Notes under the pieces: generated by a model | The model's input: the letters and a program-made list of their open reading frames with translations, nothing else | What the model was told of the DNA's origin: nothing | Databases searched by the model: none | NCBI RefSeq assembly: GCF_030128825.1 | Contig: NZ_CP119128.1 | Location: 385,986 to 449,985 of the forward strand | Direction of reading: 5' to 3' | Source: Sphingobium sp. WTD-1 | GTDB taxonomy: Bacteria; Pseudomonadota; Alphaproteobacteria; Sphingomonadales; Sphingomonadaceae | Length of the DNA: 64,000 bases | Translations under genes and position numbers: made by a program | In this document: in pieces, positions 6,396 to 20,548 of the stretch | Numbering within the stretch: position 1 is the first letter of the stretch | Layout of the letters: each line of letters starts with the position of its first letter

Positions 6396-6403
6396 AAGGG
6401 GGC
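6382..6403 (+). terminator. Hairpin formed across the transposon junction
   Basis: GCCCCCTT and AAGGGGGC form an 8-bp stem with a 6-base loop that contains the stop codon of the preceding gene. The right arm is supplied by the first bases of the Tn3-family repeat. No U-tract follows, so termination is uncertain. Confidence 0.3.
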
Positions 6404-6435
6404 GTTTGCGGGAGGGGGCGGAATCCTACGCCAAG
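6398..6435 (+). repeat. Left terminal inverted repeat of the Tn3-family transposon
   Basis: This 38-bp repeat begins GGGGGCGTTTGCGGG and ends ACGCCAAG. It matches the right repeat at 37 of 38 positions. The GGGG start and the -ACGCTAAG-type inner end are typical of the Tn3 family. Confidence 0.95.
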
Positions 6436-6461
6436 CTCGCCCAGATAGCCGGCGCGAGATC

Positions 6462-6992: not shown

Positions 6993-7609
6993 CGCGTTTT
7001 GGCAGCAAGCACGCGCTGACCGTAATCCCGGAGTTCCCCGTTGGGACCGACATAGCGGTAGAGAGTGACGCGCTCGATCCCGAGTTCCTTGCAGAGGTCG
7101 GAAACGGACGTGTCGCGTTGGGCCATAGCAGCCTGAGCGAGCCGCACCTGGGCCTTGGAGAGGGCGAACTTGCGGCCACCCTTGCGTCCCCGCGCGCGGG
7201 CAGCGGCCAGGCCAGCCATGGTGCGCTCGCGGATCATATCCCGCTCAAACTCCGCCAGTGTGGCAAAAATGCCGAACACCATCCGGCCCGATGGCGTCGT
7301 GGTGTCGATCTGCGCGCCCTTGCCGGTGAGCACCCGCAGACCGATACCGCGATCCGACAGATTCTGCACCGTGCTGACCAGGTGGGTGAGCGTTCGGCCG
7401 AGCCGGTCGAGCTTCCAAACGATGAGGACATCGCCGTCGCGCAACGATTTCAGGCAGGCGGCAAGACCGGGGCGATCATCACGGCTACCGGATGCACGAT
7501 CATCATAGATATTGCCTGGCTCGACACCGGCAGCGCGAAGGGCATCGTGCTGCAGGTCGAGCGACTGCGAGCCGTCGGCTTTGGACACGCGGGCGTAGCC
7601 GATCAGCAT
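6989..7609 (-). CDS. tnpR: TnpR serine resolvase of the Tn3-family transposon
   Basis: This 206-residue small serine recombinase resolves transposition cointegrates at res. The catalytic serine lies in the N-terminal YARVSKADGSQS block. The resolvase signatures VWKLDRLGR and EFERDMIRERT follow, and a C-terminal helix-turn-helix (VSDLCKELGIERVTLYRYV) closes the protein. It reads away from tnpA, with res between them, and is directly followed by the overlapping GNAT gene. The Tn402-like insertion lies 35 bp upstream of its start and so cuts the res/promoter region. Its expression and resolution activity may be impaired or driven from inside the insertion. Confidence 0.93.
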   Translation of the reverse strand: MLIGYARVSKADGSQSLDLQHDALRAAGVEPGNIYDDRASGSRDDRPGLAACLKSLRDGDVLIVWKLDRLGRTLTHLVSTVQNLSDRGIGLRVLTGKGAQIDTTTPSGRMVFGIFATLAEFERDMIRERTMAGLAAARARGRKGGRKFALSKAQVRLAQAAMAQRDTSVSDLCKELGIERVTLYRYVGPNGELRDYGQRVLAAKTR

Positions 7610-7644
7610 GGATCACAAACGAAGGTTTGAGGCGGTGACGAACA
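7610..7644. promoter_or_regulatory. Left half of the split res/promoter region
   Basis: This is the tnpR-proximal part of the res region, cut by the Tn402-like insertion. It ends in one copy of the GAACA duplication (7640-7644). The remainder lies beyond the insertion, before tnpA. Confidence 0.75.
7640..7644. repeat. Target-site duplication GAACA (left copy)
   Basis: This five-base direct repeat is identical to 17534-17538 on the other side of the Tn402-like element. Five-base duplications are normal for Tn5053/Tn402 transposition, so the insertion happened by transposition and both ends are original. Confidence 0.95.
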
Positions 7645-7669
7645 TGTCATTTTCAGAAGACGACTGCAC
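7645..7669 (+). repeat. IRt, tni-side terminal repeat of the Tn402-like element
   Basis: This 25-bp end runs from TGTCATTTTC to CGACTGCAC and matches the integron-side end except at a few positions. Confidence 0.95.
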
Positions 7670-7740
7670 CAGTTGATTGGGCGTAATGGCTGTTGTGCAG
7701 CCAGCTCCTGACAGTTCAATATCAGAAGTGATCTGCACCA
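7653..7740. repeat. 19-bp TniA-binding repeats inside IRt
   Basis: TCAGAAGACGACTGCACCA (7653-7671) recurs as TCAGAAGTGATCTGCACCA (7722-7740). A third, inverted copy lies at about 7693-7711. The opposite end has two such repeats (TCAGAAG...CTGCACT) at about 17487-17527. Arrays of this kind are the known transposase-binding sites of Tn5053/Tn402 elements. Confidence 0.8.
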
Positions 7741-7785
7741 ATCTCGACTATGCTCAATACTCGTGTGCACCAAAGCGAGGTGAGC

Positions 7786-9465
7786 ATGGCGACGGACACC
7801 CCACGGATTCCAGAACAAGGCGTGGCCACTCTGCCTGATGAGGCTTGGGAGCGTGCGCGCCGTCGTGCGGAGATCATCAGTCCGTTGGCGCAGTCGGAGA
7901 CGGTCGGGCACGAAGCGGCCGATATGGCGGCTCAGGCGCTGGGCTTGTCTCGGCGCCAGGTATACGTTCTGATCCGGCGTGCCCGGCAAGGCAGCGGCCT
8001 CGTGACGGATCTGGTGCCCGGCCAGTCCGGTGGAGGTAAAGGTAAGGGGCGCTTGCCGGAACCGGTCGAGCGCGTCATCCACGAGCTACTGCAAAAGCGG
8101 TTCCTGACCAAGCAGAAGCGCAGCCTAGCGGCCTTTCACCGCGAAGTCACTCAGGTGTGCAAGGCTCAAAAACTGCGAGTGCCGGCGCGCAATACCGTGG
8201 CCTTACGGATCGCTAGCCTTGACCCGCGCAAGGTCATCCGCCGGCGGGAAGGCCAGGATGCCGCTCGTGACCTACAAGGTGTGGGCGGCGAGCCTCCTGC
8301 CGTGACCGCGCCGCTGGAGCAGGTGCAGATAGACCATACGGTCATCGACCTGATCGTGGTCGATGACCGCGACCGGCAACCTATTGGCCGCCCGTACCTG
8401 ACCCTCGCCATCGACGTGTTCACCCGCTGCGTGCTCGGCATGGTCGTCACGCTGGAAGCGCCGTCTGCCGTTTCGGTTGGCCTGTGCCTCGTGCATGTCG
8501 CCTGCGACAAGCGCCCTTGGCTGGAAGGACTGAACGTGGAAATGGATTGGCAGATGAGCGGCAAGCCCTTGCTGCTCTACCTAGACAACGCGGCCGAGTT
8601 CAAGAGCGAGGCCCTGCGCCGGGGTTGCGAGCAGCATGGCATCCGGCTGGACTATCGCCCGCTGGGACAGCCGCACTATGGCGGCATCGTGGAACGGATC
8701 ATCGGCACGGCGATGCAGATGATTCACGACGAACTGCCGGGAACGACCTTCTCCAACCCTGACCAGCGCGGCGACTACGATTCCGAAAACAAGGCCGCCC
8801 TGACGCTGCGCGAGCTAGAGCGCTGGCTCACATTGGCGGTCGGCACCTACCACGGTTCGGTGCACAACGGCCTGCTCCAACCGCCGGCCGCGCGCTGGGC
8901 CGAGGCCGTGGCGCGTGTCGGCGTACCGGCCGTCGTCACACGCGCTACTTCGTTCCTGGTCGATTTTCTGCCGATCCTCCGGCGCACGCTGACCCGCACC
9001 GGCTTTGTCATCGACCACATCCACTACTACGCCGATGCGCTCAAGCCGTGGATTGCGCGGCGTGAACGCTGGCCGTCCTTTCTGATCCGGCGCGATCCGC
9101 GCGACATCAGCCGTATCTGGGTCCTGGAACCGGAGGGACAGCATTACCTGGAAATTCCCTACCGTACCTTGTCGCATCCGGCTGTCACCCTCTGGGAACA
9201 ACGGCAGGCGCTGGCGAAACTGCGGCAGCAAGGGCGCGAACAGGTGGATGAGTCGGCGCTGTTCCGCATGATCGGCCAGATGCGTGAGATTGTGACCAGC
9301 GCGCAGAAGGCCACACGCAAGGCGCGGCGTGACGCGGATCGCCGCCAGCACCTCAAGACATCAGCTCGGCCGGACAAGCCCGTTCCGCCGGATACGGATA
9401 TTGCCGACCCGCAGGCAGACAACTTGCCACCCGCCAAACCGTTCGACCAGATTGAGGAGTGGTAG
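7786..9465 (+). CDS. tniA: TniA DDE transposase of the Tn402-like element
   Basis: This retroviral-integrase-type transposase cuts and joins the TGT/ACA ends together with TniB and TniQ. The ATG chosen follows GAGGTGAGC and gives 559 residues, the usual TniA length; an upstream in-frame ATG at 7750 would add 12 residues. The DDE core is visible as QIDHTVIDL, LLLYLDNAAEFKS and GGIVERIIG, followed by a Mu-type C-terminal domain. It is first in the tniA-tniB-tniQ operon, with TniA-binding repeats just upstream. Confidence 0.96.
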   Translation: MATDTPRIPEQGVATLPDEAWERARRRAEIISPLAQSETVGHEAADMAAQALGLSRRQVYVLIRRARQGSGLVTDLVPGQSGGGKGKGRLPEPVERVIHELLQKRFLTKQKRSLAAFHREVTQVCKAQKLRVPARNTVALRIASLDPRKVIRRREGQDAARDLQGVGGEPPAVTAPLEQVQIDHTVIDLIVVDDRDRQPIGRPYLTLAIDVFTRCVLGMVVTLEAPSAVSVGLCLVHVACDKRPWLEGLNVEMDWQMSGKPLLLYLDNAAEFKSEALRRGCEQHGIRLDYRPLGQPHYGGIVERIIGTAMQMIHDELPGTTFSNPDQRGDYDSENKAALTLRELERWLTLAVGTYHGSVHNGLLQPPAARWAEAVARVGVPAVVTRATSFLVDFLPILRRTLTRTGFVIDHIHYYADALKPWIARRERWPSFLIRRDPRDISRIWVLEPEGQHYLEIPYRTLSHPAVTLWEQRQALAKLRQQGREQVDESALFRMIGQMREIVTSAQKATRKARRDADRRQHLKTSARPDKPVPPDTDIADPQADNLPPAKPFDQIEEW

Positions 9466-9467
9466 CC

Positions 9468-10376
9468 GTGGACGAATATCCCATCATCGACCTGTCCCAC
9501 CTGCTGCCGGCGGCCCAGGGCTTGGCCCGTCTTCCGGCGGACGAGCGCATCCAGCGCCTTCGCGCCGACCGCTGGATCGGCTATCCGCGCGCAGTCGAGG
9601 CGCTGAACCGGCTGGAAGCCCTTTATGCGTGGCCAAACAAGCAACGCATGCCCAACCTGCTGCTGGTTGGCCCGACCAACAATGGCAAGTCGATGATCGT
9701 CGAGAAGTTCCGCCGCACCCACCCGGCCAGCTCCGACGCCGACCAGGAGCACATCCCGGTGTTGGTCGTGCAGATGCCGTCCGAGCCGTCCGTGATCCGC
9801 TTCTACGTCGCGCTGCTCGCCGCGATGGGCGCGCCGCTGCGCCCACGCCCACGGTTGCCGGAAATGGAGCAACTGGCTCTGGCACTGCTGCGCAAGGTCG
9901 GCGTGCGCATGCTGGTGATCGACGAGCTGCACAACGTGCTGGCCGGCAACAGCGTCAACCGCCGGGAATTCCTCAACCTGCTGCGCTTCCTCGGCAACGA
10001 ACTGCGCATCCCGTTGGTTGGGGTAGGCACGCGCGACGCCTACCTAGCCATCCGCTCCGATGACCAGTTGGAAAATCGCTTCGAGCCGATGATGCTGCCG
10101 GTATGGGAGGCCAACGACGATTGCTGCTCACTGCTGGCCAGCTTCGCCGCTTCGCTCCCGCTGCGCCGGCCTTCCCCAATTGCCACGCTGGACATGGCTC
10201 GCTACCTGCTCACACGCAGCGAGGGCACCATAGGGGAACTGGCGCACTTGCTGATGGCGGCGGCCATCGTCGCCGTGGAGAGCGGCGAGGAAGCGATCAA
10301 CCATCGCACACTCAGCATGGCCGTTTACACCGGACCCAGCGAGCGGCGGCGGCAATTCGAGCGGGAACTGATGTGA
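9468..10376 (+). CDS. tniB: TniB ATP-binding transposition protein
   Basis: This AAA+ ATPase regulates target selection with TniA. The GTG start follows GAGGAG and gives 302 residues, the standard length. The Walker A motif is seen in LLLVGPTNNGKSMIVEKF and Walker B in MLVIDELHNVL. An N-terminal TniB-type segment precedes the nucleotide-binding core. It begins 2 bp after tniA and overlaps tniQ by 4 bp (GTGA), so the three genes form one coupled operon. Confidence 0.95.
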   Translation: MDEYPIIDLSHLLPAAQGLARLPADERIQRLRADRWIGYPRAVEALNRLEALYAWPNKQRMPNLLLVGPTNNGKSMIVEKFRRTHPASSDADQEHIPVLVVQMPSEPSVIRFYVALLAAMGAPLRPRPRLPEMEQLALALLRKVGVRMLVIDELHNVLAGNSVNRREFLNLLRFLGNELRIPLVGVGTRDAYLAIRSDDQLENRFEPMMLPVWEANDDCCSLLASFAASLPLRRPSPIATLDMARYLLTRSEGTIGELAHLLMAAAIVAVESGEEAINHRTLSMAVYTGPSERRRQFERELM

Positions 10377-11590
10377 AGCCTGCGCCGCGCTGGCCGCTGC
10401 ATCCCGCCCCGAAAGAAGGCGAGGCGCTGTCCTCATGGCTCAACCGCGTGGCCCTTTGCTATCACATGGAGGAGCCCGACCTGCTGGAGCACGATCTTGG
10501 TCACGGCCAGGTCGATGACCTGGACACCGCGCCACCACTCTCGCTGCTGGCGTTGCTTTCCCAGCGGAGCGGCATCGAGCTGGACCGGCTGCGCTGTATG
10601 AGTTTCGCCGGATGGGTGCCTTGGCTACTGGACAGCCTTGATGACCAGATTCCAGACGCCTTGGAAACCTATGCGTTTCAGCTCTCGGTGTTGCTGCCAA
10701 GACTCCGCCGTAAGACGCGATCCATCACGAGCTGGCGTGCCTGGCTGCCCAGCCAGCCGATAAACCGCGCCTGTCCGCTCTGCCTGAGCGATCCGGAGAA
10801 CCAAGCCGTACTGCTCGCGTGGAAGCTGCCCCTGATGCTGAGCTGCCCGCTGCATGGCTGCTGGCTGGAATCCTATTGGGGCGTGCCAGGGCGGTTTCTC
10901 GGCTGGGAGAACGCCGACGCCGAACCGCGCACCGCCAGCGACGCGATTGCGGCGATGGACCAGCGTACCTGGCAGGCACTGACAACCGGTCACGTGGAGC
11001 TGCCGCGCCGACGCATCCACGCCGGATTGTGGTTTCGACTTCTTCGCACGCTGCTCGATGAGCTGAACACCCCGCTTTCCGCGTGCGGAACCTGCGCGGG
11101 GTATCCCCGCCAAGTCTGGGAAGGCTGCGGGCATCCGCTGCGTGCTGGGCAAAGTCTGTGGCGACCGTATGAAACCCTGAATCCGATAGTACGGTTACAG
11201 ATGCTGGAGGCGGCGGCAACGGCAATCAGCTTGATTGAGGTGAGGGACATCAGCCCGCCAGGCGAGCAGGCAAAGCTATTCTGGTCCGAGCCCCAAACCG
11301 GGTTCACCAGTGGCCTGCCGACGAAAGCGCCGAAGCCCGAGCCCATCAATCACTGGCAGCGTGCAGTCCAGGCCATCGACGAGGCCATCATTGAAGCGCG
11401 ACACAACCCCGAGACGGCACGCTCGCTGTTCGCGTTGGCTTCCTATGGTCGGCGCGATCCCGCTTCCTTGGAACGGTTGCGCGCCACCTTCGTGAAGGAA
11501 GGCATCCCGCCGGAATTTCTGTCACATTACCTGCCTGATGCACCCTTTGCATGTCTTAAACAAAATGACGGGTTAAGTGACAAATTTTGA
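10373..11590 (+). CDS. tniQ: TniQ transposition accessory protein
   Basis: This 405-residue protein is required for Tn402/Tn5053 transposition and for res-site targeting; the family also includes TnsD-type targeting proteins. Cysteine pairs of a zinc-binding TniQ domain are visible (NRACPLCLSD, MLSCPLHGCW, SACGTCAGYP). The GTG start overlaps the tniB stop. The last codons run into the recombination site used by TniR. Confidence 0.94.
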   Translation: MKPAPRWPLHPAPKEGEALSSWLNRVALCYHMEEPDLLEHDLGHGQVDDLDTAPPLSLLALLSQRSGIELDRLRCMSFAGWVPWLLDSLDDQIPDALETYAFQLSVLLPRLRRKTRSITSWRAWLPSQPINRACPLCLSDPENQAVLLAWKLPLMLSCPLHGCWLESYWGVPGRFLGWENADAEPRTASDAIAAMDQRTWQALTTGHVELPRRRIHAGLWFRLLRTLLDELNTPLSACGTCAGYPRQVWEGCGHPLRAGQSLWRPYETLNPIVRLQMLEAAATAISLIEVRDISPPGEQAKLFWSEPQTGFTSGLPTKAPKPEPINHWQRAVQAIDEAIIEARHNPETARSLFALASYGRRDPASLERLRATFVKEGIPPEFLSHYLPDAPFACLKQNDGLSDKF

Positions 11591-11636
11591 CGGATAGAGC
11601 TTTCCGGCTCACACTGTCACATAATCGAACGTATAC
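11545..11636 (+). promoter_or_regulatory. res site and promoter of tniR
   Basis: This AT-richer stretch spans the tniQ 3' end and the short gap before tniR. It carries recurring GTGAC/GTCAC half-sites (TTAAGTGAC, CTGTCACATAATCG, TATACGTGAC). It is where TniR is expected to bind, resolve cointegrates and repress itself. Confidence 0.65.
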
Positions 11637-12275
11637 GTGACGGGTGAAAAGGTGCTGATCGGCTACATGCGGGTATCGAAGGCGGACGGATCCCAGTCCA
11701 CCAATTTGCAACGCGATGCGCTCATCGCCGCTGGTGTGAGCCTTGCGCACCTTTACGAGGATCTGGCCTCGGGCAGGCGCGATGATCGCCCAGGGTTGGC
11801 TGCTTGCCTGAAGGCGCTTCGTGAAGGGGACACGCTGATCGTGTGGAAGCTCGATCGGCTTGGCCGTGATCTGCGCCACCTGATCAACACCGTGCACGAC
11901 CTAACTGCGCGTAGCGTGGGCCTGAAGGTCCTGACCGGTCACGGTGCGGCGGTCGACACGACGACTGCCGCCGGCAAGCTTGTGTTCGGTATTTTTGCCG
12001 CGCTGGCCGAGTTCGAGCGTGAGTTGATTTCCGAGCGAACAGTCGCTGGACTTATCTCGGCGCGCGCTCGCGGCAGGAAAGGGGGGCGCCCCTTCAAGAT
12101 GACCGCCGCCAAGCTACGCCTGGCGATGGCCAGCATGGGGCAACCGGAAACCAAGGTGGGCGATCTCTGCGAAGAACTCGGGATTACCCGGCAGACGCTC
12201 TACCGGCACGTGTCGCCCAAGGGCGAACTGCGGCCAGACGGCGTAAAGCTGCTCTCCCTCGGTTCAGCCGCATAA
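11637..12275 (+). CDS. tniR: TniR serine resolvase of the Tn402-like element
   Basis: This small serine recombinase of 212 residues (207 if the GTG at 11652 is used) resolves Tn402 cointegrates. The catalytic serine is in YMRVSKADGSQS, with VWKLDRLGRDL and EFERELISERT as further resolvase marks. A C-terminal HTH (VGDLCEELGITRQTLYRHV) follows. It is related to, but distinct from, the tnpR of the surrounding Tn3-family transposon. It points toward the integron array and ends 71 bp before the last cassette gene, which reads toward it. Confidence 0.94.
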   Translation: MTGEKVLIGYMRVSKADGSQSTNLQRDALIAAGVSLAHLYEDLASGRRDDRPGLAACLKALREGDTLIVWKLDRLGRDLRHLINTVHDLTARSVGLKVLTGHGAAVDTTTAAGKLVFGIFAALAEFERELISERTVAGLISARARGRKGGRPFKMTAAKLRLAMASMGQPETKVGDLCEELGITRQTLYRHVSPKGELRPDGVKLLSLGSAA

Positions 12276-12346
12276 ATGGAGGCGACCTGGAACGGGGCGC
12301 TGTTCAGTGCGGCAACGATCCGATTACCGGTGTCGACCCAAAGCTG
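12276..12346. other. Junction between tniR and the cassette array
   Basis: These 71 bp hold neither an attC-like R''/R' pair nor any 3'-conserved-segment sequence that I recognise. The beta-lactamase cassette should have ended here with an attC. Its absence suggests that the cassette's tail was lost when the array joined the tni module. Confidence 0.5.
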
Positions 12347-13510
12347 TCATTGTTTCCCGGTTAGATTGCTATAAATTTTGTGGGCAATTTCTACCCGTTC
12401 AGCATTGGGGTAGTTTTTATTGGCCAGCAACACAACCCCGAAGCGCTTTTCAGGCACAAACGCAACATAAGCACCGAAGCCGTTGGTAGCACCAGTCTTG
12501 TTAACCCACACATTGCTGTTAGGTGTGGCTGCAGGAACCTTAGCGCTTACTGGGGTTGGATTCAGGATAAGTTTGGGAGCATTGCCTTCTTGCAGCATAG
12601 GCAAGTCAACAGGCATTGCATACTCCTCCCAGATGAGGTCTTGAGTCATCTGGCCTACGCTGAAATAGCTCTTGCGGGTATTGTTTAAAGCCGATTGCAG
12701 CATGCTATCCAAGGGCAACATGCCCATGTTGGCCTTCACAAAGGTGATCAGGTCAGTAGCCGTGGTTTTGATGCCGTAGGCTTCACTGTCCAACATGCCT
12801 GGATTGACACGCACAGGCTTCTTATCGTTGTTGTAGCCCCAAGCGTAGCTGGACATCTTCTGTGCAGGGATGCTCAGATAAGTGCTAGTCAAACCGAGGG
12901 GCTGGAAAATGGTTTGAGTCATGGCGGTGCTGAAATCTTGCCCCAAACTTTTCGCCGTTATCCACCCTAAAGCACCGATGCTTGGGTTTGCATAAGTACG
13001 CATCGTGCCGGTTTTGTACGCAGGCTTCCAGGTGCGGAGGTATTCCAGAAGCTGCTCCCGAGTTTGGACTTCATCAGGCACCTGCAGAGGAATGCCGCCA
13101 ACGGTGTGCGTTCCAAGATGGAAAAGCTGCAAGTTACCGAAGTCCGTACCAGACAACTCAGGCAAATACTTTGCTGCTGTATCGGTCAGTTTCAGCTTCC
13201 CAGTGGCTTCTGCGTGCGTCGCCAGTGTGGCTGTGAAGGTCTTACTGATAGAGCCAATCTCAAAAATCGTCTCGTCAGTTACCGGTGTTTGTTTCTCAAC
13301 ATCTGACACGCCATAGTTTAAGACATAAGTCTTGTCCCCCAATACCAATGCCACAGCCATACCAGGAATCTGGTTCTTTTCCATGGCAGGCAGCACGGCT
13401 GCAGAGATGGCTTTCATTGCTTCAGCACTGGAAATTTCAGCAGCATTGACAGCCGAGCCAAGACCAAAGACAGCGGCTGTCAGAAGGACAGTAAACAGAC
13501 GGTTTTTCAA
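12347..13510 (-). CDS. Class C (AmpC-type) beta-lactamase in the integron
   Basis: This 387-residue periplasmic serine beta-lactamase would hydrolyse penicillins and cephalosporins. The signal peptide ends near VNAA. All class C motifs are present: S87-I-S-K90, Y173-A-N175 and K338-T-G340. It reads in the same direction as the other resistance cassettes and is the most distal from attI1. About 240 bp of noncoding DNA separate its start from the catB3 attC, and base composition is visibly less GC-rich than the surroundings, suggesting chromosomal ampC origin. Integron-borne class C genes are uncommon (IDC-type enzymes are known). I cannot assign this one to a named variant. Confidence 0.9.
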   Translation of the reverse strand: MKNRLFTVLLTAAVFGLGSAVNAAEISSAEAMKAISAAVLPAMEKNQIPGMAVALVLGDKTYVLNYGVSDVEKQTPVTDETIFEIGSISKTFTATLATHAEATGKLKLTDTAAKYLPELSGTDFGNLQLFHLGTHTVGGIPLQVPDEVQTREQLLEYLRTWKPAYKTGTMRTYANPSIGALGWITAKSLGQDFSTAMTQTIFQPLGLTSTYLSIPAQKMSSYAWGYNNDKKPVRVNPGMLDSEAYGIKTTATDLITFVKANMGMLPLDSMLQSALNNTRKSYFSVGQMTQDLIWEEYAMPVDLPMLQEGNAPKLILNPTPVSAKVPAATPNSNVWVNKTGATNGFGAYVAFVPEKRFGVVLLANKNYPNAERVEIAHKIYSNLTGKQ

Positions 13511-13749
13511 TTTTTACCTTACGGGTGAAGGAGGAAAGCCAACGCTGGCACTTGCGATGCAATTGAGTGCTGTAGCGCTACGAGCTGGGGATTCTAAAAA
13601 ATTTGATAGCAAATTGGCTCGGCATCGCGGAGCGATGAGTGACTGCTTCTGGCCGGACTGAGACTCTCACTTGTGATGCGGCACGGCCGACCGCCCCCGA
13701 GCGTCTCGACCCGACCCAGAGCAGCCGTAGAGCTTTTGGGAAAGCTGTC
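13511..13749 (-). promoter_or_regulatory. Long untranslated leader of the beta-lactamase cassette
   Basis: This stretch has no gene on either strand that I would call. Most cassettes start within 50 bp of the recombination point, so this leader may preserve the gene's own promoter from its previous host. Confidence 0.4.
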
Positions 13750-13809
13750 GTTCAACGCCTGAAATAAGCCGTGCCGCGAAGCGGCATCGGCTTGATTGAA
13801 TTGTTAGAC
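13750..13809 (-). other. attC site of the catB3 cassette
   Basis: This imperfect inverted repeat is bounded by GTCTAAC (R'') and GTTGAAC (R') on the minus strand, with a central GCCGATGCCGC / GCGGCACGGC hairpin. The catB3 stop lies within R''. It is 60 bp long. Confidence 0.9.
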
Positions 13810-14436
13810 GGCAAACTCGAGCCAATACTTGTGCAGGCCAACAATATTAGACGAGCACAGCATGGGCATTGCCGCTTTGATCTTCTCCAGTGACCAATTC
13901 CACCACTCCATCTCCAGAAGCAATGAAATTTCCTCATCGGTGAAGCGTTTCTTAATCTTCTTAGCGGGATTGCCGCCAACGATAGCGTAAGGCTCCACAT
14001 CTTTTGTCACCAACGAGCGGCTGCCTATCACCGCACCGTGCCCGATCTTGATTCCGGGCATGACCATTGCCTCAGAGCCGATCCAAACGTCATTGCCAAT
14101 GACAGTATTACCTGCTTTTTGGAAGGCATCGAGTGCGCTTGAGAATGCAGGTTCTTCCTGCATATAAAAGAACGGGAAAGATGATGCCCAGTCGTACCGA
14201 TGCCCCTGATTGCCAGCCATGATAAAGGAAGCCCCACTCCCGATAGAGCAGAAACTACCGATGATCAACTTATCAACGTCATCACGGTCCGGAAACAGAT
14301 ACCGTGCGCAGTCATCGAATGAGTGCCCATGATAGTAGCCAGAGTAATAGCTGTACCGCCCAACTTTGATATTGGGGTTCTTCACTTGCTCAGAAAGCAG
14401 CTTGCCTTTGAAGGGGCTATCAAAGTAGTTGGTCAT
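13804..14436 (-). CDS. catB3: CatB3-type chloramphenicol O-acetyltransferase
   Basis: This xenobiotic acetyltransferase of the left-handed beta-helix (hexapeptide-repeat) class acetylates chloramphenicol with acetyl-CoA. Its 210-residue sequence reads as CatB3 from [14 protein letters not shown] to the C-terminus. Hexapeptide repeats are seen in [20 protein letters not shown]. It is the penultimate cassette from the tni side, in the standard cassette orientation. Pc is about 2 kb away, so transcription is likely weak unless helped by a local promoter. Confidence 0.96.
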
Positions 14437-14464
14437 AAGAGATCCCGCGGTCTGTGACTTTGCC

Positions 14465-14554
14465 GTCTAACGTTTGAAATAAGGGGCGCCGAGCGCCAGC
14501 GAGGGGAGCCAAAAGCTTGCTTTTGGCCGTCCCGACTTGATTGAAGGGTTGGGC
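14465..14554 (-). other. attC site of the yefM-yoeB cassette
   Basis: This 90-bp element has GCCCAAC at one end and GTTAGAC at the other on the minus strand. Complementary internal arms include AAAAGCTTGCTTTT. It closes the toxin-antitoxin cassette whose genes read opposite to their neighbours. Confidence 0.88.
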
Positions 14555-14586
14555 GTTTTTTTGCCTCGCCTTCGAGTTGCTCTTGT

Positions 14587-14604
14587 TGTACAATTTTCTG
14601 TACA
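14587..14604 (+). promoter_or_regulatory. YefM operator with two TGTACA boxes
   Basis: Two perfect TGTACA palindromes start at 14587 and 14599, 12 bp apart, and a near copy (TGTACG) follows directly. The E. coli yefM-yoeB operator is built from TGTACA cores with 12-bp centre spacing, so autorepression by the YefM/YoeB complex is expected. Confidence 0.8.
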
Positions 14605-14619
14605 TGTACGGAGGATGTT

Positions 14620-14871
14620 ATGGACGCTATCACTTACACACACGCCCGCGCCAACCTGGCTGGAACCATGGATCGTGTTTGCAACGATCATGAGCCGGTG
14701 ATCATCACACGTAACGGCGACCAATCGGTTGTGATTCTCTCGCTGGAAGATTTCCAGGCGCTGGAAGAAACTGCGTATCTGCTGCGCAGCCCCGCCAACG
14801 CCAAGCGGCTTTTCAAGTCGATCGAGCAACTTGAAGCGGGCCGAGGACAGGCGCGGGAGTTGGCCGAATGA
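14620..14871 (+). CDS. yefM: YefM/Phd-family antitoxin in an integron cassette
   Basis: This 83-residue antitoxin should bind and neutralise the downstream RNase and repress the operon as a DNA-binding complex. The N-terminus (ITYTHARANLAGTMDRV) is the Phd/YefM DNA-binding fold, and VIITRNGDQSVVILSLEDF is the family's second signature. GGAGG precedes the ATG. It overlaps yoeB by 4 bp (ATGA). The pair is transcribed opposite to the other cassettes from its own promoter, so it does not depend on Pc. Confidence 0.94.
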   Translation: MDAITYTHARANLAGTMDRVCNDHEPVIITRNGDQSVVILSLEDFQALEETAYLLRSPANAKRLFKSIEQLEAGRGQARELAE

Positions 14872-15122
14872 GATTAATTTTTTCCGATGATGCATGGGAA
14901 GATTATCTGTTCTGGCAAAAACAAGACCGCCGCATGGTTGATCGAATTAACAAGCTAATTAAAGAAACCACCCGAGAGCCTTTCTCTGGAGTGGGCAAGC
15001 CAGAGCCATTAAAACATGCTTTGGCCGGTTATTGGTCTCGTCGAATTACGGATGAGCACCGAATGGTTTACAAAGTGGCGGATGATGCCCTTTGGATCGT
15101 TCAACTCAAGTACCACTACTGA
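14868..15122 (+). CDS. yoeB: YoeB/Txe-family mRNA endonuclease toxin
   Basis: This 84-residue ribosome-dependent RNase cleaves translated mRNA. Family landmarks are WEDYLFWQKQDRR near the N-terminus, GVGKPEPLKHALAGYWSRRI in the middle and the C-terminal LKYHY with the catalytic His and Tyr. It is translationally coupled to the antitoxin. Loss of the cassette would leave stable toxin and labile antitoxin, so the pair could select for retention of the array. Confidence 0.94.
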   Translation: MRLIFSDDAWEDYLFWQKQDRRMVDRINKLIKETTREPFSGVGKPEPLKHALAGYWSRRITDEHRMVYKVADDALWIVQLKYHY

Positions 15123-15128
15123 AAAGAC

Positions 15129-15200
15129 GCCCAACGTTTGACATGAGGGGCGGCCAAGGGCGCCAGCCCTTGGACGTCCCCCTCGATGGAAGGGTTAGGC
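15129..15200 (-). other. attC site of the aac(6')-Ib cassette
   Basis: This 72-bp site is bounded by GCCTAAC and GTTGGGC on the minus strand. Strong internal arms include CCAAGGGC/GCCCTTGG. The aac(6')-Ib stop lies in R''. It is the standard attC of this cassette. Confidence 0.94.
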
Positions 15201-15749
15201 ATCACTGCGTGTTCGCTCGAATGCCTGGCGTGTTTGAACCATGTACACGGCTGGACCATCTGGGGTGGTTACGGTACCTTGCCTCTCAAACCCCGCTTTC
15301 TCGTAGCATCGGATCGCTCGCAAGTTGCTCGGCGACGGGTCCGTTTGGATCTTGGTGACCTCGGGATCATTGAACAGCAACTCAACCAGAGCTCGAACCA
15401 GCTTGGTTCCCAAGCCTTTGCCCAGTTGTGATGCATTCGCCAGTGACTGGTCTATTCCGCGTACTCCTGGATCGGTTTCTTCTTCCCACCATCCGTCCCC
15501 GCTTCCAAGAGCAACGTACGACTGGGCATACCCAATCGGCTCTCCATTCAGCATTGCAATGTATGGAGTGACGGACTCTTGCGCTAAAACGCTTGGCAAG
15601 TACTGTTCCTGTACGTCAGCAAGTGTCGGGCGTGCTTCTTCTCCGCCCCACCACTCGACGATATGAGATCGATTTAGCCACTCATAGAGCATCGCAAGGT
15701 CATGCTCAGTCATGAGGCGCAGTGTGACGGAATCGGTGCTGTTGGTCAC
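15195..15749 (-). CDS. aac(6')-Ib: AAC(6')-Ib' aminoglycoside acetyltransferase (Ser variant)
   Basis: This GNAT enzyme acetylates the 6'-amino group of aminoglycosides. It reads as AAC(6')-Ib over 184 residues from a GTG start. One position is informative: the usual RGIDQLLAN is RGIDQSLAN (Q101-S102 here, Q118-S119 in the published numbering). That Leu-to-Ser change defines AAC(6')-Ib' and is known to shift specificity from amikacin to gentamicin. The two '-cr' changes are absent: W87 and D164 keep the parental Trp and Asp. Second cassette from attI1, driven by Pc. Confidence 0.95.
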
Positions 15750-15767
15750 GATGCTGTACTTTGTGAT

Positions 15768-15824
15768 GCCTAACGAATTAGCTCAGCGGGCGGCGAAGCC
15801 ATCCGCTGGAGCGACTAGTTGGGC
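15768..15824 (-). other. attC site of the dfrB cassette
   Basis: This 57-bp site has GCCCAAC and GTTAGGC ends on the minus strand and a short central stem. It separates dfrB from aac(6')-Ib. Confidence 0.92.
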
Positions 15825-15877
15825 TGTGGACGGTGCCGCATGATTTGGCCGTCAGGCGGTGCATTTCAACCGTGACT

Positions 15878-16114
15878 TCAGGCCACCCGTTCAAGCGCAG
15901 TCATGGGATAAATCTGGACTGAGCCTGGGTGAGATTCGGACTCGACGGCGTAGCCTTCAGGGGTAAGTGTTGTGCAGTACCACCCGACAATGCGCCCCTG
16001 CCAAGCAGCGCCAGACTTCTTGCGTACGCGATCCCCCAAGGCAAACGTGGCGTTTGATGGGAATGCGAACCGGCCAGCAGCTGAAGTACTGACCTCATTT
16101 TTTCCTTCATTCAT
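15878..16114 (-). CDS. dfrB4: DfrB4-type trimethoprim-resistant dihydrofolate reductase
   Basis: This is a 78-residue type II DHFR, unrelated to chromosomal FolA. It works as a homotetramer with one central active pore and is not inhibited by trimethoprim. The pore residues V66-Q67-I68-Y69 and K32 are intact, and the SH3-like core ([19 protein letters not shown]) is unbroken. The N-terminal [18 protein letters not shown] fits DfrB4 rather than DfrB1 or DfrB3. As first cassette after attI1 it gets the strongest Pc transcription. The ATG is preceded by AGAGG. Confidence 0.94.
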
Positions 16115-16175
16115 TTCAAACCTCTTTTTAATGTTTTAGGTTATCGCCAGCTCGGCAACTTGATACTCTGGTGAA

Positions 16176-16240
16176 GCCCAACTTTGTTTTAGGGCGACTG
16201 CCCTGCTGCGTAACATCGTTGCTGCTCCATAACATCAAAC
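16176..16240 (-). other. attI1 primary recombination site
   Basis: The simple site GTTGGGC (minus strand) marks the crossover point next to the dfrB cassette. The adjoining bases carry the known IntI1-binding repeats, including the ATGTTACGCAGCAGGGCAG segment read on the minus strand. Confidence 0.92.
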
Positions 16241-16317
16241 ATCGACCCACGGCGTAACGCGCTTGCTGCTTGGATGCCCGAGGCATAGACTGTACAAAAA
16301 AACAGTCATAACAAGCC

Positions 16318-17331
16318 ATGAAAACCGCCACTGCGCCGTTACCACCGCTGCGTTCGGTCAAGGTTCTGGACCAGTTGCGTGAGCGCATACGCTACTTGCA
16401 TTACAGTTTACGAACCGAACAGGCTTATGTCCACTGGGTTCGTGCCTTCATCCGTTTCCACGGTGTGCGTCACCCGGCAACCTTGGGCAGCAGCGAAGTC
16501 GAGGCATTTCTGTCCTGGCTGGCGAACGAGCGCAAGGTTTCGGTCTCCACGCATCGTCAGGCATTGGCGGCCTTGCTGTTCTTCTACGGCAAGGTGCTGT
16601 GCACGGATCTGCCCTGGCTTCAGGAGATCGGAAGACCTCGGCCGTCGCGGCGCTTGCCGGTGGTGCTGACCCCGGATGAAGTGGTTCGCATCCTCGGTTT
16701 TCTGGAAGGCGAGCATCGTTTGTTCGCCCAGCTTCTGTATGGAACGGGCATGCGGATCAGTGAGGGTTTGCAACTGCGGGTCAAGGATCTGGATTTCGAT
16801 CACGGCACGATCATCGTGCGGGAGGGCAAGGGCTCCAAGGATCGGGCCTTGATGTTACCCGAGAGCTTGGCACCCAGCCTGCGCGAGCAGCTGTCGCGTG
16901 CACGGGCATGGTGGCTGAAGGACCAGGCCGAGGGCCGCAGCGGCGTTGCGCTTCCCGACGCCCTTGAGCGGAAGTATCCGCGCGCCGGGCATTCCTGGCC
17001 GTGGTTCTGGGTTTTTGCGCAGCACACGCATTCGACCGATCCACGGAGCGGTGTCGTGCGTCGCCATCACATGTATGACCAGACCTTTCAGCGCGCCTTC
17101 AAACGTGCCGTAGAACAAGCAGGCATCACGAAGCCCGCCACACCGCACACCCTCCGCCACTCGTTCGCGACGGCCTTGCTCCGCAGCGGTTACGACATTC
17201 GAACCGTGCAGGATCTGCTCGGCCATTCCGACGTCTCTACGACGATGATTTACACGCATGTGCTGAAAGTTGGCGGTGCCGGAGTGCGCTCACCGCTTGA
17301 TGCGCTGCCGCCCCTCACTAGTGAGAGGTAG
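16318..17331 (+). CDS. intI1: IntI1 class 1 integron integrase
   Basis: This 337-residue tyrosine recombinase inserts and excises cassettes at attI1 and attC. The length and sequence are those of full-length IntI1. The catalytic set is visible as GTGMRISEG (first Arg), [11 protein letters not shown] (His and Arg), LLGHSDVST (His) and MIYTH (nucleophilic Tyr). Residues R32 and H39 identify the allele, and the H39 codon overlaps the -35 box of Pc. It is divergent from the cassettes, and only about 180 bp separate its terminus from IRi. Confidence 0.97.
16405..16433 (-). promoter_or_regulatory. Integron cassette promoter Pc, variant PcH1
   Basis: On the minus strand inside intI1, TGGACA (16428-16433) and TAAACT (16405-16410) are separated by 17 bp. 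This combination is the hybrid PcH1 promoter, weaker than PcS (TTGACA/TAAACT). It drives the dfrB4 and aac(6')-Ib' cassettes. Confidence 0.9.
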
Positions 17332-17508
17332 GGCAGCGCAAGTCAATCCTGGCGGATTCACTACCCCTGCGCGAAGGCCATCGGTGCCGCATCGAACGGC
17401 CGGTTGCGGAAAGTCCTCCCTGCGTCCGCTGATGGCCGGCAGCAGCCCGTCGTTGCCTGATGGATCCAACCCCTCCGCTGCTATAGTGCAGTCGGCTTCT
17501 GACGTTCA

Positions 17509-17533
17509 GTGCAGCCGTCTTCTGAAAACGACA
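17509..17533 (-). repeat. IRi, integron-side terminal repeat
   Basis: This 25-bp end reads TGTCGTTTTCAGAAG to GGCTGCAC on the minus strand. The second TniA-binding repeat lies just inside, next to the GGATCC typical of class 1 integron 5' segments. Confidence 0.96.
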
Positions 17534-17538
17534 GAACA
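17534..17538. repeat. Target-site duplication GAACA (right copy)
   Basis: Identical to 7640-7644. The pair proves that the integron element transposed into the Tn3-family transposon as one unit. Confidence 0.95.
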
Positions 17539-17628
17539 TGAGCACATAAGATTGGGCTATTGTGTATCTTAACCAGCATCTCAATCAAGCTATCTCAAAC
17601 CGTAGCTCGGAAAGAATAAGGAGCATGT
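17539..17628. promoter_or_regulatory. Right half of the split res region and tnpA promoter area
   Basis: This AT-richer 90 bp between the duplication and tnpA holds the rest of res, with short repeated ATCTTAACC/AGCTATCTCAA-like segments. AAGGAGC precedes the tnpA ATG. Confidence 0.6.
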
Positions 17629-20520
17629 ATGCCGCGTCGCGTGACCCTGACCGATCGACAGCGCGAGGCGCTGCTTCACTTGCCGGTCGATCAAGGTGAG
17701 CTGCTGCGGCACTATACCCTCAGCGATGAGGATCTCGGGCATATCCGCCAGCGCCGGCGCGCCCACAATCGTTTTGGCTTCGCGCTGCAACTGTGCGTCC
17801 TGCGCTACCCGGGCCGGGTGCTCGCTCCTGGCGAGTTGATCCCGGCGCAGGTATCGGATTTCATCGCGGCCCAGCTCGGCCTGACCAGCGACGATCTACT
17901 CCTCTATGCCGCGCGCGAGGAGACCCGGCACGAGCATCTGGCGGACCTTCGCCGAATCTACGGCTATCGCTCCTTTTCGGGGCGGGGCGCACGGGATTTG
18001 CGCGAATGGATCGCTCGGGAAGCCGAGGCGGCGACATCGAATGAGGATCTTGCCCGTCGCTTCGTTGCGGAGTGTCGCCGCACCCGCACGATCCTTCCCG
18101 GCTCCTCGACGATCGAGCGCCTTTGCGCCGATGCGCTGGTTGAGGCCGAGCGCCGGATCGAGGATCTTATCGCCCATCGCATCACGCCAACCCTGAGCGA
18201 GAATTTGGCTCACCTGTTGGAGGATACGGTGGATGGTCGCGTCACGCGCTTCGTATGGCTGCGACAGTTCGAGGTTGGCGCAAATTCAGCAGCCGCTAAC
18301 CGGCTGATGGATCGACTGGAATATCTTCAAAGGTTCGATCTTCCGGCGGATTTGCTGGACGGCGTGCCGGCGCATCGTGTGACCCGGCTTCGCCGGCAGG
18401 GCGAGCGCTATTACGCCGACGGCATGCGTGATCTGCCCGAAGACAGGCGGCTTGCGATCCTCGCTGTCTGCACCCTGGAATGGCGGTCATCGCTGGCCGA
18501 TGTCATCGTGGAGACCCACGATCGCATCGTAGGCCGTCTCTATCGGGCCTCCGAACGCCTTTGCAACACCAGGATCGCCGACGAAAAGGCGGCCGTTCGG
18601 GACACGCTGAAGTCCTTTGCCGAAATCGGTGGTGCTTTGCTTGGAGCGCAGGACGATGGCACGGCCCTGGACGGGATAATCGCCACCGGGCCTGGCTGGG
18701 AACGGTTCAGAACCCTTGTCGCCACGGCCTCCGCGCTGACCAACGTGCTCGCGGCCGACCCGCTCAGCCGTGTGCTGGACGGCTATCACCGTTTCCGCCT
18801 CTACGCGCCCAGGATGCTGCGCCTGCTCGACATGCAGGCGGCGCCGATCGCCACGCCTCTTCTGGCGGCCGTTGCGATGCTGCGTAACGGGATCAAGGTC
18901 GATCCGCCGGTGGATTTTCTACGTCCCAACTCGAAATGGCATCGTCATCTTCGCGCTGAGCCCAGCGGCGACCACCGGCTTTGGGAAATCGCGGTGCTGT
19001 TCCACATCCGCGACGCCTTCCGGTCCGGTGACATATGGTTGGCGGGATCGCGCCGCTATGGCGACCTCAAGCAGCTTCTGGTCCCGCCACAGGCGATAGA
19101 GCAGACCGCGCGGCTCGCCGTGCCGCTGCGGCCCGGCGAATGGCTGGCCGAGCGCAGGGCTCGACTGGATACACGGCTGAAGGAGTTTGGCCGCGCGGCG
19201 CGAACCGGCACGATCCCAGGCGGCATCATCGAGAACGGCAAGCTGCACATCGACAAGCTGAGGGCCGACACGCCCGAAGGGGCCGAGGATCTCGTGCTCG
19301 ATCTCTATCAACAGCTCCCGCCCGCGAGGATCACCGATCTGTTGCTGGAAGTCGATGAGCGAACCGGATTTTCCGAGGCGTTCACGCATCTGCGCACCGG
19401 CGCGCCCTGCAGCGACCGGATCGGCCTGATGAACGTGTTGCTGGCGGAAGGCGTCAATCTCGGTTTGCGCAAGATGGCGGCGGCGACCAACACGCACAGC
19501 TTCTGGGAATTGCTGCGGATCGCGCGCTGGCATGTCGAAGGCAGCGCCTATGATCGGGCGCTCGCCATGATCGTGGAGGCCCACGCCGCCCTGCCCATGG
19601 CCGCCTTCTGGGGACAAGGGCAATCGGCATCCAGCGACGGGCAGTTCTTCCTTGCTACCGAGCAGGGCGAGGCGATGAATCTGATCAACGCGAAATATGG
19701 CAACGTCCCGGGCCTCAAGGGATACAGCCATGTGTCCGATCAATATGCGCCGTTCGCAACCCAGGTGATCCCGGCAACGGTCAGCGAGGCTCCCTATATC
19801 CTGGACGGGCTGCTCATGAATGACGCGGGCCGCCGCGTTCGCCAGCATTTTGCCGACACGGGCGGCTTCACCGATCATGTGTTCGCCGCCTGCGCCTTGC
19901 TCGGCTACAGGTTCGCCCCCCGTATCCGCGATCTCCCTCAGAAAAGACTCTATGCCTTCACGCCCAACGCGACGCCGGCCAATGTGCGAGCGCTGGTCGG
20001 AGGTAAGATCAATGAACCGCTCATCGAGCGCAACTGGCCCGACATCCTGCGCATCATGGCGACGATCGCAGCGGGGATCGTCGCCCCCAGCCAGATTCTT
20101 CGCAAGCTCGCCTCTTACCCGCGCCAGAATGAGCTGGCCCTCGCATTGCGAGAGGTGGGCCGCATCGAGCGAACCCTGTTCATGATCGACTGGATTCTTG
20201 ATGCCGGCCTCCAGCGCCAGGCTCAGATCGGCCTCAACAAGGGTGAGGCCCACCACGCCCTAAAGCGCGCCATCAGCTTCCACCGCCGAGGTGAAATCCG
20301 GGATCGATCCGGCGAAGGCCAGCACTATCGCATCGCCGGAATGAACCTGCTCGCCGCCATCATCATATTCTGGAACACCATGAAGCTCGGCGAGGTCGTC
20401 AATACCCGGGCCGCCAGCGGTACCCATATCGCGCCTGATCTACTCGCCCACGTCTCGCCGTTGGGATGGGAACACATCAATCTAACCGGGGAATATCGCT
20501 GGCCCAAATCCTTAGCGTAG
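17629..20520 (+). CDS. tnpA: Tn3-family replicative transposase TnpA
   Basis: This 963-residue DDE transposase performs replicative transposition between 38-bp ends. The catalytic triad can be placed at D670 (SSDGQFF), D743 (FADTGGFTDHVF) and E873 (LNKGEAHHALKR). The 130-residue gap between the second Asp and the Glu equals that in Tn3 TnpA. The N-terminal DNA-binding region and C-terminal NLLAAIIIFWNTMKL are typical. The stop codon lies inside the right terminal repeat. AAGGAGC gives a good ribosome binding site. The gene is intact, so the element could still move if its ends are recognised. Confidence 0.97.
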   Translation: MPRRVTLTDRQREALLHLPVDQGELLRHYTLSDEDLGHIRQRRRAHNRFGFALQLCVLRYPGRVLAPGELIPAQVSDFIAAQLGLTSDDLLLYAAREETRHEHLADLRRIYGYRSFSGRGARDLREWIAREAEAATSNEDLARRFVAECRRTRTILPGSSTIERLCADALVEAERRIEDLIAHRITPTLSENLAHLLEDTVDGRVTRFVWLRQFEVGANSAAANRLMDRLEYLQRFDLPADLLDGVPAHRVTRLRRQGERYYADGMRDLPEDRRLAILAVCTLEWRSSLADVIVETHDRIVGRLYRASERLCNTRIADEKAAVRDTLKSFAEIGGALLGAQDDGTALDGIIATGPGWERFRTLVATASALTNVLAADPLSRVLDGYHRFRLYAPRMLRLLDMQAAPIATPLLAAVAMLRNGIKVDPPVDFLRPNSKWHRHLRAEPSGDHRLWEIAVLFHIRDAFRSGDIWLAGSRRYGDLKQLLVPPQAIEQTARLAVPLRPGEWLAERRARLDTRLKEFGRAARTGTIPGGIIENGKLHIDKLRADTPEGAEDLVLDLYQQLPPARITDLLLEVDERTGFSEAFTHLRTGAPCSDRIGLMNVLLAEGVNLGLRKMAAATNTHSFWELLRIARWHVEGSAYDRALAMIVEAHAALPMAAFWGQGQSASSDGQFFLATEQGEAMNLINAKYGNVPGLKGYSHVSDQYAPFATQVIPATVSEAPYILDGLLMNDAGRRVRQHFADTGGFTDHVFAACALLGYRFAPRIRDLPQKRLYAFTPNATPANVRALVGGKINEPLIERNWPDILRIMATIAAGIVAPSQILRKLASYPRQNELALALREVGRIERTLFMIDWILDAGLQRQAQIGLNKGEAHHALKRAISFHRRGEIRDRSGEGQHYRIAGMNLLAAIIIFWNTMKLGEVVNTRAASGTHIAPDLLAHVSPLGWEHINLTGEYRWPKSLA

Positions 20521-20548
20521 GATTCCGCCCCCTCCCGCAAACGCCCCC
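20511..20548 (-). repeat. Right terminal inverted repeat of the Tn3-family transposon
   Basis: This repeat reads GGGGGCGTTTGCGGG to ACGCTAAG on the minus strand. It has one mismatch to the left repeat (CTAAG here, CCAAG there) and includes the tnpA stop codon. Confidence 0.95.

What the first reader, a model, noticed from the sequence alone, without database searches (positions are those of the whole stretch)
7640..17538. Tn402-like integron inserted exactly in the res region of a Tn3-family transposon
The sequence shows a complete Tn402-like element flanked by GAACA on both sides, lying 35 bp from tnpR and 90 bp from tnpA. Tn5053/Tn402 elements are known to target res sites of other transposons. 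This is a clean recorded case that links two mobile systems into one 14-kb unit. It also cuts the resolvase's own site, which could turn the outer transposon into a cointegrate-forming element.
Basis: partly seen in the sequence, partly recalled or inferred. Interest (0 to 1): 0.75.

Follow-up and report, generated by a model that had tools for sequence, protein, structure and literature searches.

The report
Integron orients by res, not tnpR
On a Sphingobium-type plasmid, a drug-resistance gene collector (a class 1 integron) sits inside the DNA-exchange site of another jumping gene and faces the opposite way from the 18 classed integrons beside a resolvase gene that were counted here, which likely means that such integrons take their direction from the exchange site itself rather than from the position of the neighbouring resolvase gene.

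Summary
A complete Tn402-like class 1 integron (7645-17533; 25-bp ends; GAACA duplication) lies in the tnpR-tnpA gap of a Tn5393-like transposon (6397-20549). Plasmid pTB1 carries the same locus empty, with one GAACA.

The integron is reversed relative to the published rule: its IRt end, not its integrase end, faces tnpR. In a survey, 18 of 26 integrase ends and 0 of 24 tniA (IRt) ends faced a resolvase gene.

The likely reason is that res runs backwards here. In this resolvase class the crossover subsite (site I) touches the resolvase gene: hybrid elements switch parents just before or inside that subsite. The integron lies between site I and the inferred sites II/III, with IRt towards site I, the usual polarity relative to res. 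Plasmid pM02_c6 shows an independent reversed insertion with a duplication. Against it: a truncated integron in Stenotrophomonas (L156) lies outside a res of this class with its integrase end facing tnpR.

Cointegrate formation is not a safe conclusion: the outer res is split, but the integron brings its own uninterrupted tniR and res. Nesting in res is known; I found no report of the polarity reading, and it is testable.

The parts
6397..6435 (+). Left terminal repeat of the outer Tn5393-like transposon
   Evidence: 39-nt inverted repeat, 97% complementary to 20511-20549
6462..6992 (-). GNAT-family acetyltransferase passenger gene, overlapping tnpR by 4 bp
   Evidence: ORF list; same gene annotated in pTB1
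6989..7609 (-). tnpR, resolvase of the outer transposon, uninterrupted, 206 aa
   Evidence: 100% in pTB1, 90% to Tn5393 TnpR, 66-67% to TniR
7610..7635 (-). Predicted res site I (crossover site), next to tnpR
   Evidence: Register of the TniR class (the score in this very sequence is not above shuffles); crossover mapped to the equivalent site in natural hybrids
7640..7644 (.). Target duplication GAACA, left copy
   Evidence: single copy in pTB1
7645..17533 (+). Complete Tn402-like class 1 integron, 9889 bp
7645..7669 (+). IRt, tniA-side end, facing tnpR
7750..9465 (+). tniA
9459..10376 (+). tniB
10373..11590 (+). tniQ
   Evidence: Position transferred from the annotation of L216; ORF ends at 11590
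11521..11641 (+). Res of the inner element; site I at 11616-11641, next to tniR
   Evidence: Half-sites in shared register; crossover mapping
11652..12275 (+). tniR, inner resolvase, uninterrupted
   Evidence: Start matches annotated tniR of L216
12347..13510 (-). Cassette gene: class C beta-lactamase, below the cut-off of the specific named families listed
13804..14436 (-). Cassette gene: catB-type chloramphenicol acetyltransferase
   Evidence: NF000490, 444.9 bits against cut-off 350
14620..15122 (+). Cassette with a toxin-antitoxin pair (Txe/YoeB-type toxin at 14868-15122)
   Evidence: TIGR02116, 123.7 bits against cut-off 51.8; the antitoxin ORF is read only
15195..15749 (-). Cassette gene: aac(6')-Ib family
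   Evidence: NF033074, 432.1 bits against cut-off 400
16318..17331 (+). intI1, class 1 integron integrase
   Evidence: NF011946, 799.5 bits against cut-off 435
17509..17533 (-). IRi, integrase-side end, facing tnpA
17534..17538 (.). Target duplication GAACA, right copy
17564..17624 (-). Predicted res sites II and III of the outer transposon, on the tnpA side of the insert
   Evidence: Inferred from the register of the TniR class; weak scores in this sequence
17629..20520 (+). tnpA, Tn3-family transposase of the outer transposon, uninterrupted, 963 aa
   Evidence: NF033527, 1008 bits against cut-off 500; 99.8% in pTB1
20511..20549 (+). Right terminal repeat of the outer transposon

Best explanation
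A complete Tn402-like class 1 integron lies, between two copies of GAACA, in the tnpR-tnpA gap of a resident Tn5393-like transposon, and it likely entered by res-hunting transposition that took its direction from the polarity of res, predicted to run with the crossover site (site I) next to tnpR and sites II/III on the tnpA side. Shown by sequence: ends, duplication, empty site, the reversed orientation relative to tnpR, and natural hybrids whose parents switch just before or inside the resolvase-proximal subsite. Inferred: that this subsite is site I in the outer transposon itself; where its sites II and III lie; that the TniA/B/Q machinery senses resolvase on res and places IRt towards site I and IRi/IRo towards II/III; that TnpR can no longer resolve cointegrates of the outer transposon; and that the inner TniR and its res would resolve them instead.
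For: Empty pTB1 locus with one GAACA. Survey of 132 ends in 120 loci: a resolvase gene reading away from the insert within 400 bp at 18 of 26 IRi ends and 0 of 24 IRt ends with at least 300 bp of flank (first pass on 80 loci). Published rule: IRo nearest the resolvase gene (PMC7765201, passages). Polarity of res: in 3 of 5 fetched Tn402 relatives (L217, L218, L220) 39, 106 and 36 of 384 upstream columns differ from the window, the last 7-9 bp before the tniR-proximal dyad, then 0 of 286; L216 and L219 do not differ in this stretch. p12969-DIM joins tniABQ and res of a Tn402/Tn5053-type element to tnpR-strAB of Tn5393 inside that dyad, within AACGT, which both parents share and which holds the central AA; 8 records match this junction 100% over the full query. 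L156 shows the same switch with a different left parent. Half-sites in shared register give a I-II centre distance of about 63 bp, 6 helical turns. A half-site model from the TniR class ranks the tnpR-side half of site I first of 238 in 4 of 4 Tn5393-class gaps. Against Tn5393, identity rises from 45% in the spacer to 96% (23 of 24) over the site-I half-sites. Second reversed insertion: pM02_c6, a mer-type element, CTGGC on both sides, IRt 38 bp from a Tn5393-type tnpR, other end facing the II/III side. One-sided support: pWP7-S18-CRE-03_3, IRt 38 bp from Tn5393 tnpR; L146, an end with IRt letters 44 bp from a TniR-type gene, end type not proven.
Against: L156 (Stenotrophomonas): a truncated integron with IRi facing a Tn5393-type tnpR at 149 bp, 28 bp outside predicted site III; it obeys the gene rule and has the opposite polarity relative to res. 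L154: an end with IRt letters and an IS6100-type 3' end faces a 48% resolvase at 91 bp, reversed in another class, end type not classed. 8 of 26 IRi ends have no resolvase nearby. Scores are weak: in pTB1 the best half-site (3.7) lies below the mean shuffled maximum (5.1), the tnpA-side half of site I ranks 23rd, sites II/III 3rd to 51st of 238; L209 shows no distal half-sites and the inferred II and III half-sites overlap by 5 bp. Single-sequence dyads do not exceed shuffles (P 0.115 to 1); the pooled test (P 0.012) had four of nine sequences out of register. Site order in the usual targets comes from the literature, not from my mapping. PMC7157771 states that tnpR lies next to site III in every TnpR case of its collection. 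pWP7 was found with a query containing IRt (biased) and its other end lacks Tn5393 flank and repeat. Fisher P is 0.016 with L156 counted against and 0.041 with L154 too; two of the 18 are one strain.
Confidence: 0.67

Rival explanations
1. Ordinary res-hunting in which orientation is only a bias: the insert landed in the less common direction by chance, and res polarity has no role.
For: Orientation is called 'preferred' in the literature (PMC7765201); the number of reversed cases is small; L156 keeps the gene rule beside a Tn5393-type tnpR and L154 may break it beside another resolvase class.
Against: 0 of 24 IRt ends in the survey face a resolvase gene, while both insertions verified at both ends between sites I and II of this res class are reversed and lie 9 and 12 bp from site I.
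Confidence: 0.23
2. The insertion was not guided by the resident TnpR-res complex at all; the element hit an intergenic gap by resolvase-independent transposition.
For: Resolvase-independent transposition of Tn502 and Tn512 to random sites is the title of a paper that I could not read (not held; title seen in a reference list).
Against: The 5-bp target lies within a 125-bp res; the position (between sites I and II) matches reported targets (PMC12217951); two further elements hit nearly the same spot of related res sites.
Confidence: 0.06
3. One reading: the insertion disables resolution, so the outer transposon now makes lasting cointegrates.
For: Site I is separated from the inferred sites II/III by 9.9 kb; a comparable split by In104 in SGI1 leaves a resolution-deficient island that precise removal restores (PMC12217951, passages).
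Against: This insert has an uninterrupted tniR and a res with half-sites in the shared register; both copies in a cointegrate would carry it.
Confidence: 0.2

Closest known systems
Tn402 and its class 1 integron relatives (R751, recalled to be record NC_001735)
   Same: tniABQ-res-tniR plus intI1 and cassettes; the 30 listed records cover 62-72% of the element at 88.5-100% identity, NC_001735 66% at 98.8%
   Different: Cassette array with a class C beta-lactamase, catB, a toxin-antitoxin pair and aac(6')-Ib; inserted in a Tn5393-type res, reversed relative to tnpR
Tn5393 (Tn163 subgroup of the Tn3 family)
   Same: Divergent tnpR and tnpA around a 125-bp res; TnpR 90% and TnpA 74% identical
   Different: No strAB; a GNAT gene beside tnpR; 39-bp ends against 81 bp reported for Tn5393 (PMC3281130, passages)
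In104 in SGI1; Tn6006 in a Tn501-like res; Tn502 and Tn5053 in Tn6603
   Same: Tn402/Tn5053-family elements or integrons nested in a res with 5-bp repeats (PMC12217951, PMC5460862, PMC7765201; passages read)
   Different: PMC7765201 gives IRo nearest the resolvase gene as the typical orientation; here IRt is nearest
Mer-type element in pM02_c6 (JX194160)
   Same: IRt faces site I and a Tn5393-type tnpR at 38 bp, 5-bp duplication, other end facing the II/III side
   Different: Mer cargo rather than an integron; the target is a Tn402-type/Tn5393 hybrid res

Membership tests
Tn402/Tn5053 family | 25-bp terminal inverted repeats | tested here: met
Tn402/Tn5053 family | tniA, tniB, tniQ, tniR with res between tniQ and tniR | tested here: met
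Tn402/Tn5053 family | 5-bp target duplication | tested here: met
   GAACA; single copy in pTB1
Tn402/Tn5053 family | Insertion at a res site | tested here: met
   Within the 125-bp tnpR-tnpA gap
Tn402/Tn5053 family | IRo/IRi end nearest the target resolvase gene (reported preference) | tested here: not met
   IRt faces tnpR; a reported preference rather than a strict criterion
Tn402/Tn5053 family | Active transposition | not testable with these tools
   Genes uninterrupted, activity unknown
Class 1 integron | intI1 with a cassette array | tested here: met
Tn5393-like Tn3-family transposon | Tn3-family TnpA, divergent tnpR, terminal repeats | tested here: met
Tn5393-like Tn3-family transposon | Target duplication around the outer copy | tested here: not met
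   CTGAA against ATAGC; the left-flank gene is shared with pSPHCH01 (L009) but the right flank is not, which suggests later recombination between copies
Serine-resolvase res with three subsites | Crossover site I adjoining the resolvase gene in the TniR/Tn5393 class | tested here: met
   Natural hybrids and half-site model; by sequence only, no footprint
Serine-resolvase res with three subsites | Sites II and III in the outer transposon | tested here: inconclusive
   Register only, weak scores

The most novel reading that the evidence does not exclude
Tn402-family elements read the polarity of the resolvase-res complex: IRt points to crossover site I and IRi/IRo to accessory sites II/III. The textbook rule 'integrase end next to the resolvase gene' is a by-product of most res sites having site III beside that gene, and it flips for insertions into the Tn5393/TniR class, whose res runs the other way.
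Probability: 0.55. Interest if true: 0.7.

Novelty: new variant of a known kind. Interest (0 to 1): 0.57.

Why it matters
How res-hunting elements, the vehicles of class 1 integrons, choose site and direction is known to me mainly as an empirical rule about the nearest resolvase gene. This locus separates gene position from res polarity, two things that normally go together, and points to polarity. That makes the targeting question testable with one pair of target plasmids. It also shows that Tn402-type and Tn5393-type res sites have recombined with each other in nature, and that a nested element can bring a spare resolution system to the transposon whose own res it splits.

Tried and rejected
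Dyad search in single res regions: not above shuffles (P 0.115 to 1). A pooled dyad profile aligned on the start codon: P 0.012, but four of nine sequences were out of register, so little weight is put on it. Clinical plasmids whose IRt looked close to a resolvase (H132, H134): the annotated resolvase ORF overlaps the IRt end and IS6100 follows, so they look rearranged and were not used. Three loci in which an IRt-lettered end lies 58-62 bp from a tnpA (L106, L116, L057) could have been counter-examples; the resolvase found beyond the other end is 51% identical to the outer TnpR, not of the TniR class, so they fit the gene rule. L131, the fourth of this kind, is a 3-kb contig and stays undecided. 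L068: an end that interrupts a tniR gene, not a res. Phylum-wide search for the ends: 3 of 398 genomes, too few. Promoter and terminator scans of three stretches found nothing, so no claim on tnpR or tnpA expression is made. In the survey 79 of 132 ends could not be classed by the gene inside; 75 of these have 300 bp of flank, and 13 of the 75 face a resolvase (8 with IRi letters at the two variable positions, 5 with IRt letters: L068, L076, L107, L146, L154). Two IRi and one IRt end were dropped for short flank.
Full report
What is there. The window holds a 9889-bp Tn402-like class 1 integron at 7645-17533: tniA, tniB, tniQ, a res, tniR, four cassettes and intI1, between 25-bp inverted repeats that are 92% complementary. 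GAACA stands on both sides. Outside it lie tnpR (6989-7609, minus strand) and tnpA (17629-20520, plus strand) of a Tn3-family transposon with 39-bp repeats at 6397-6435 and 20511-20549. Its resolvase is 90% and its transposase 74% (over 458 residues) identical to those of a Tn5393 copy on a Klebsiella plasmid that carries strAB next to tnpR, so it is a Tn5393-like element with a GNAT gene as passenger.

The empty site. Plasmid pTB1 of Sphingobium yanoikuyae is collinear with the window on both sides (99.4% over 7646 bp, 99.9% over 18,171 bp) and has the transposon in the same place without the integron, with a 125-bp gap and one GAACA. All eight loci checked out of 28 TnpR matches listed from 397 genomes of the family show the same uninterrupted site. 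In the window's own genome the exact integron ends occur once each, and the tnpA side of the outer transposon once in full, besides partial pieces. The outer copy has no matching 5-bp flanks. The integron therefore entered a transposon that was already there; nothing shows that the 14-kb unit has moved as one.

The orientation is reversed. Rajabal et al. 2020 (PMC7765201; passages read) state that these elements insert with IRo nearest the target resolvase gene. Of 28 ends with intI1 inside, 26 have at least 300 bp of flank, and 18 of these 26 have a resolvase gene reading away within 400 bp (two of the 18 are one strain). Of 25 ends with tniA inside, 24 have the flank and 0 of 24 have such a gene. 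The other 79 ends could not be classed; 13 of the 75 with enough flank face a resolvase. In the window the tniA end (IRt) lies 35 bp from tnpR and the integrase end (IRi) 90 bp from tnpA.

Why: res polarity. Tn3 and Tn501 res have site III next to tnpR and the crossover site I away from it (PMC7157771; passages read). Three lines of evidence say that the TniR/Tn5393 class is the other way round. First, in four of five res regions of the TniR class half-sites fall at the same or nearly the same distances: a 26-bp dyad adjoining the resolvase start, then half-sites centred about 63 bp (6 turns) and about 91 bp further away; many of these scores are no higher than shuffled maxima, so the weight lies in the shared register, and the fifth region (L209) shows none. 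Second, in three of five fetched Tn402 relatives the sequence differs from the window through tniQ and the distal res (39, 106 and 36 of 384 columns) up to 7-9 bp before that dyad and then is identical for 286 of 286 columns, as expected if resolvase exchanged the two sides there; the other two do not differ in this stretch. Third, in p12969-DIM the tniABQ-res of a Tn402/Tn5053-type element is joined to tnpR-strAB of Tn5393 inside the dyad, within AACGT, which both parents share and which contains the central AA; 8 plasmid records carry this junction at 100% over the full query, and L156 shows the same switch with a different left parent. Comparing the outer transposon with Tn5393, identity is 72% in tnpA, 45% in the spacer, 96% (23 of 24) over the two site-I half-sites and 80-83% in tnpR; in L174 it falls from 92% to 67% between the two halves of site I, in L177 it rises from 58% to 83%, and in L172 there is no switch. 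The half-site model ranks the tnpR-side half of site I first of 238 positions in 4 of 4 Tn5393-class gaps, but in pTB1 its score (3.7) is below the mean of shuffled maxima (5.1), and sites II and III are weak.

Consequence. Site I of the outer res is predicted at 7610-7635, sites II/III at 17564-17624. The duplication (7640-7644) lies in the I-II spacer, where PMC12217951 says most res-hunter targets lie. IRt points to site I and IRi to II/III, which is the usual polarity relative to res. The rule about the resolvase gene and the rule about res polarity agree in the usual res and separate here.

Independent cases, for and against. The search of Tn5393 res in plasmids (625 records, 60 listed), which took no account of orientation, led to pM02_c6. 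There a mer-type element with CTGGC on both sides lies in a Tn402-type/Tn5393 hybrid res, IRt 38 bp from tnpR and the other end towards II/III. pWP7-S18-CRE-03_3 has IRt 38 bp from a Tn5393 tnpR, but was found with a query that contains IRt, and its other end lacks the partner flank. In L146 an end with IRt letters, whose first 38 bp match tniA-class ends, lies 44 bp from a TniR-type gene across site I; its type is not proven. Against: in L156 a truncated integron lies 28 bp outside predicted site III with IRi facing a Tn5393-type tnpR 149 bp away, the opposite polarity. It is not inside the I-II spacer and its other end was not found, but it keeps the gene rule. In L154 an IRt-lettered end of IS6100-type integron DNA faces a 48% resolvase at 91 bp. 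With L156 counted against, 17:0 against 1:2 gives a Fisher P of 0.016; with L154 as well, 0.041. Relatedness and small numbers limit the weight of both.

Function. Splitting site I from sites II/III should stop TnpR from resolving cointegrates, as for In104 in SGI1 (PMC12217951). The integron here brings an uninterrupted tniR and its res (site I 11616-11641), so a cointegrate of the outer transposon would contain two direct copies of a working-looking system. I therefore expect resolution to be replaced rather than lost; this is untested.

Known or new. Nesting of Tn402-family elements in res is established (PMC7765201, PMC5460862, PMC12217951). My paper searches listed no paper that I could see to treat res polarity as the orientation cue or a site-I-proximal res in Tn5393; I read passages of seven of the listed papers, not the rest. 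The papers by Minakhina, Kamali-Moghaddam and Petrovski are known to me only from reference lists, so a statement there cannot be excluded.

Noticed in passing
window 12347-13510: Cassette class C beta-lactamase passes the general class C model, but among the 25 of 47 families listed none of the specific named ones reaches its cut-off (best PNC, 495.4 against 750). Relatives are 93% in Thauera and 89% in Comamonas; one 99% cluster has 832 member sequences.
   Followed up: partly
window 14620-15122: A cassette with a toxin-antitoxin-like pair (Txe/YoeB-type toxin) read opposite to the neighbouring cassette genes.
   Followed up: no
window 5028-6395: A hypothetical gene (WP_013039108 in relatives, where it starts later) ends right at the outer transposon's left repeat, also in pTB1 and beside the transposon in pSPHCH01, though the right flank differs between pSPHCH01 and pTB1.
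   Followed up: no
G000:C3:65512-66128 and G000:C4:19190-19806: Two 617-bp remnants, 100% identical to the window's tnpA end of the outer transposon, elsewhere in the genome.
   Followed up: no
L222 3989-4014 (p12969-DIM) and relatives; L156 near 4034-4059: Hybrid Tn402-type/Tn5393 resolution sites joining tniQ-side res to Tn5393 tnpR, in several Pseudomonas plasmids and with another left parent in Stenotrophomonas.
   Followed up: partly
L156 3886-4060: A truncated class 1 integron end (intI1 seen from residue 265 on) just outside a hybrid res; whether it transposed there or was left by a deletion is unexplained.
   Followed up: partly
window 17332-17628: No terminator-like site between intI1 and tnpA, which read the same way; read-through from the integrase gene into tnpA is conceivable but untested.
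   Followed up: no
window 30221-30760 and 54295-54837: Two further resolvase-like genes, 48% and 51% identical to the outer TnpR.
   Followed up: no
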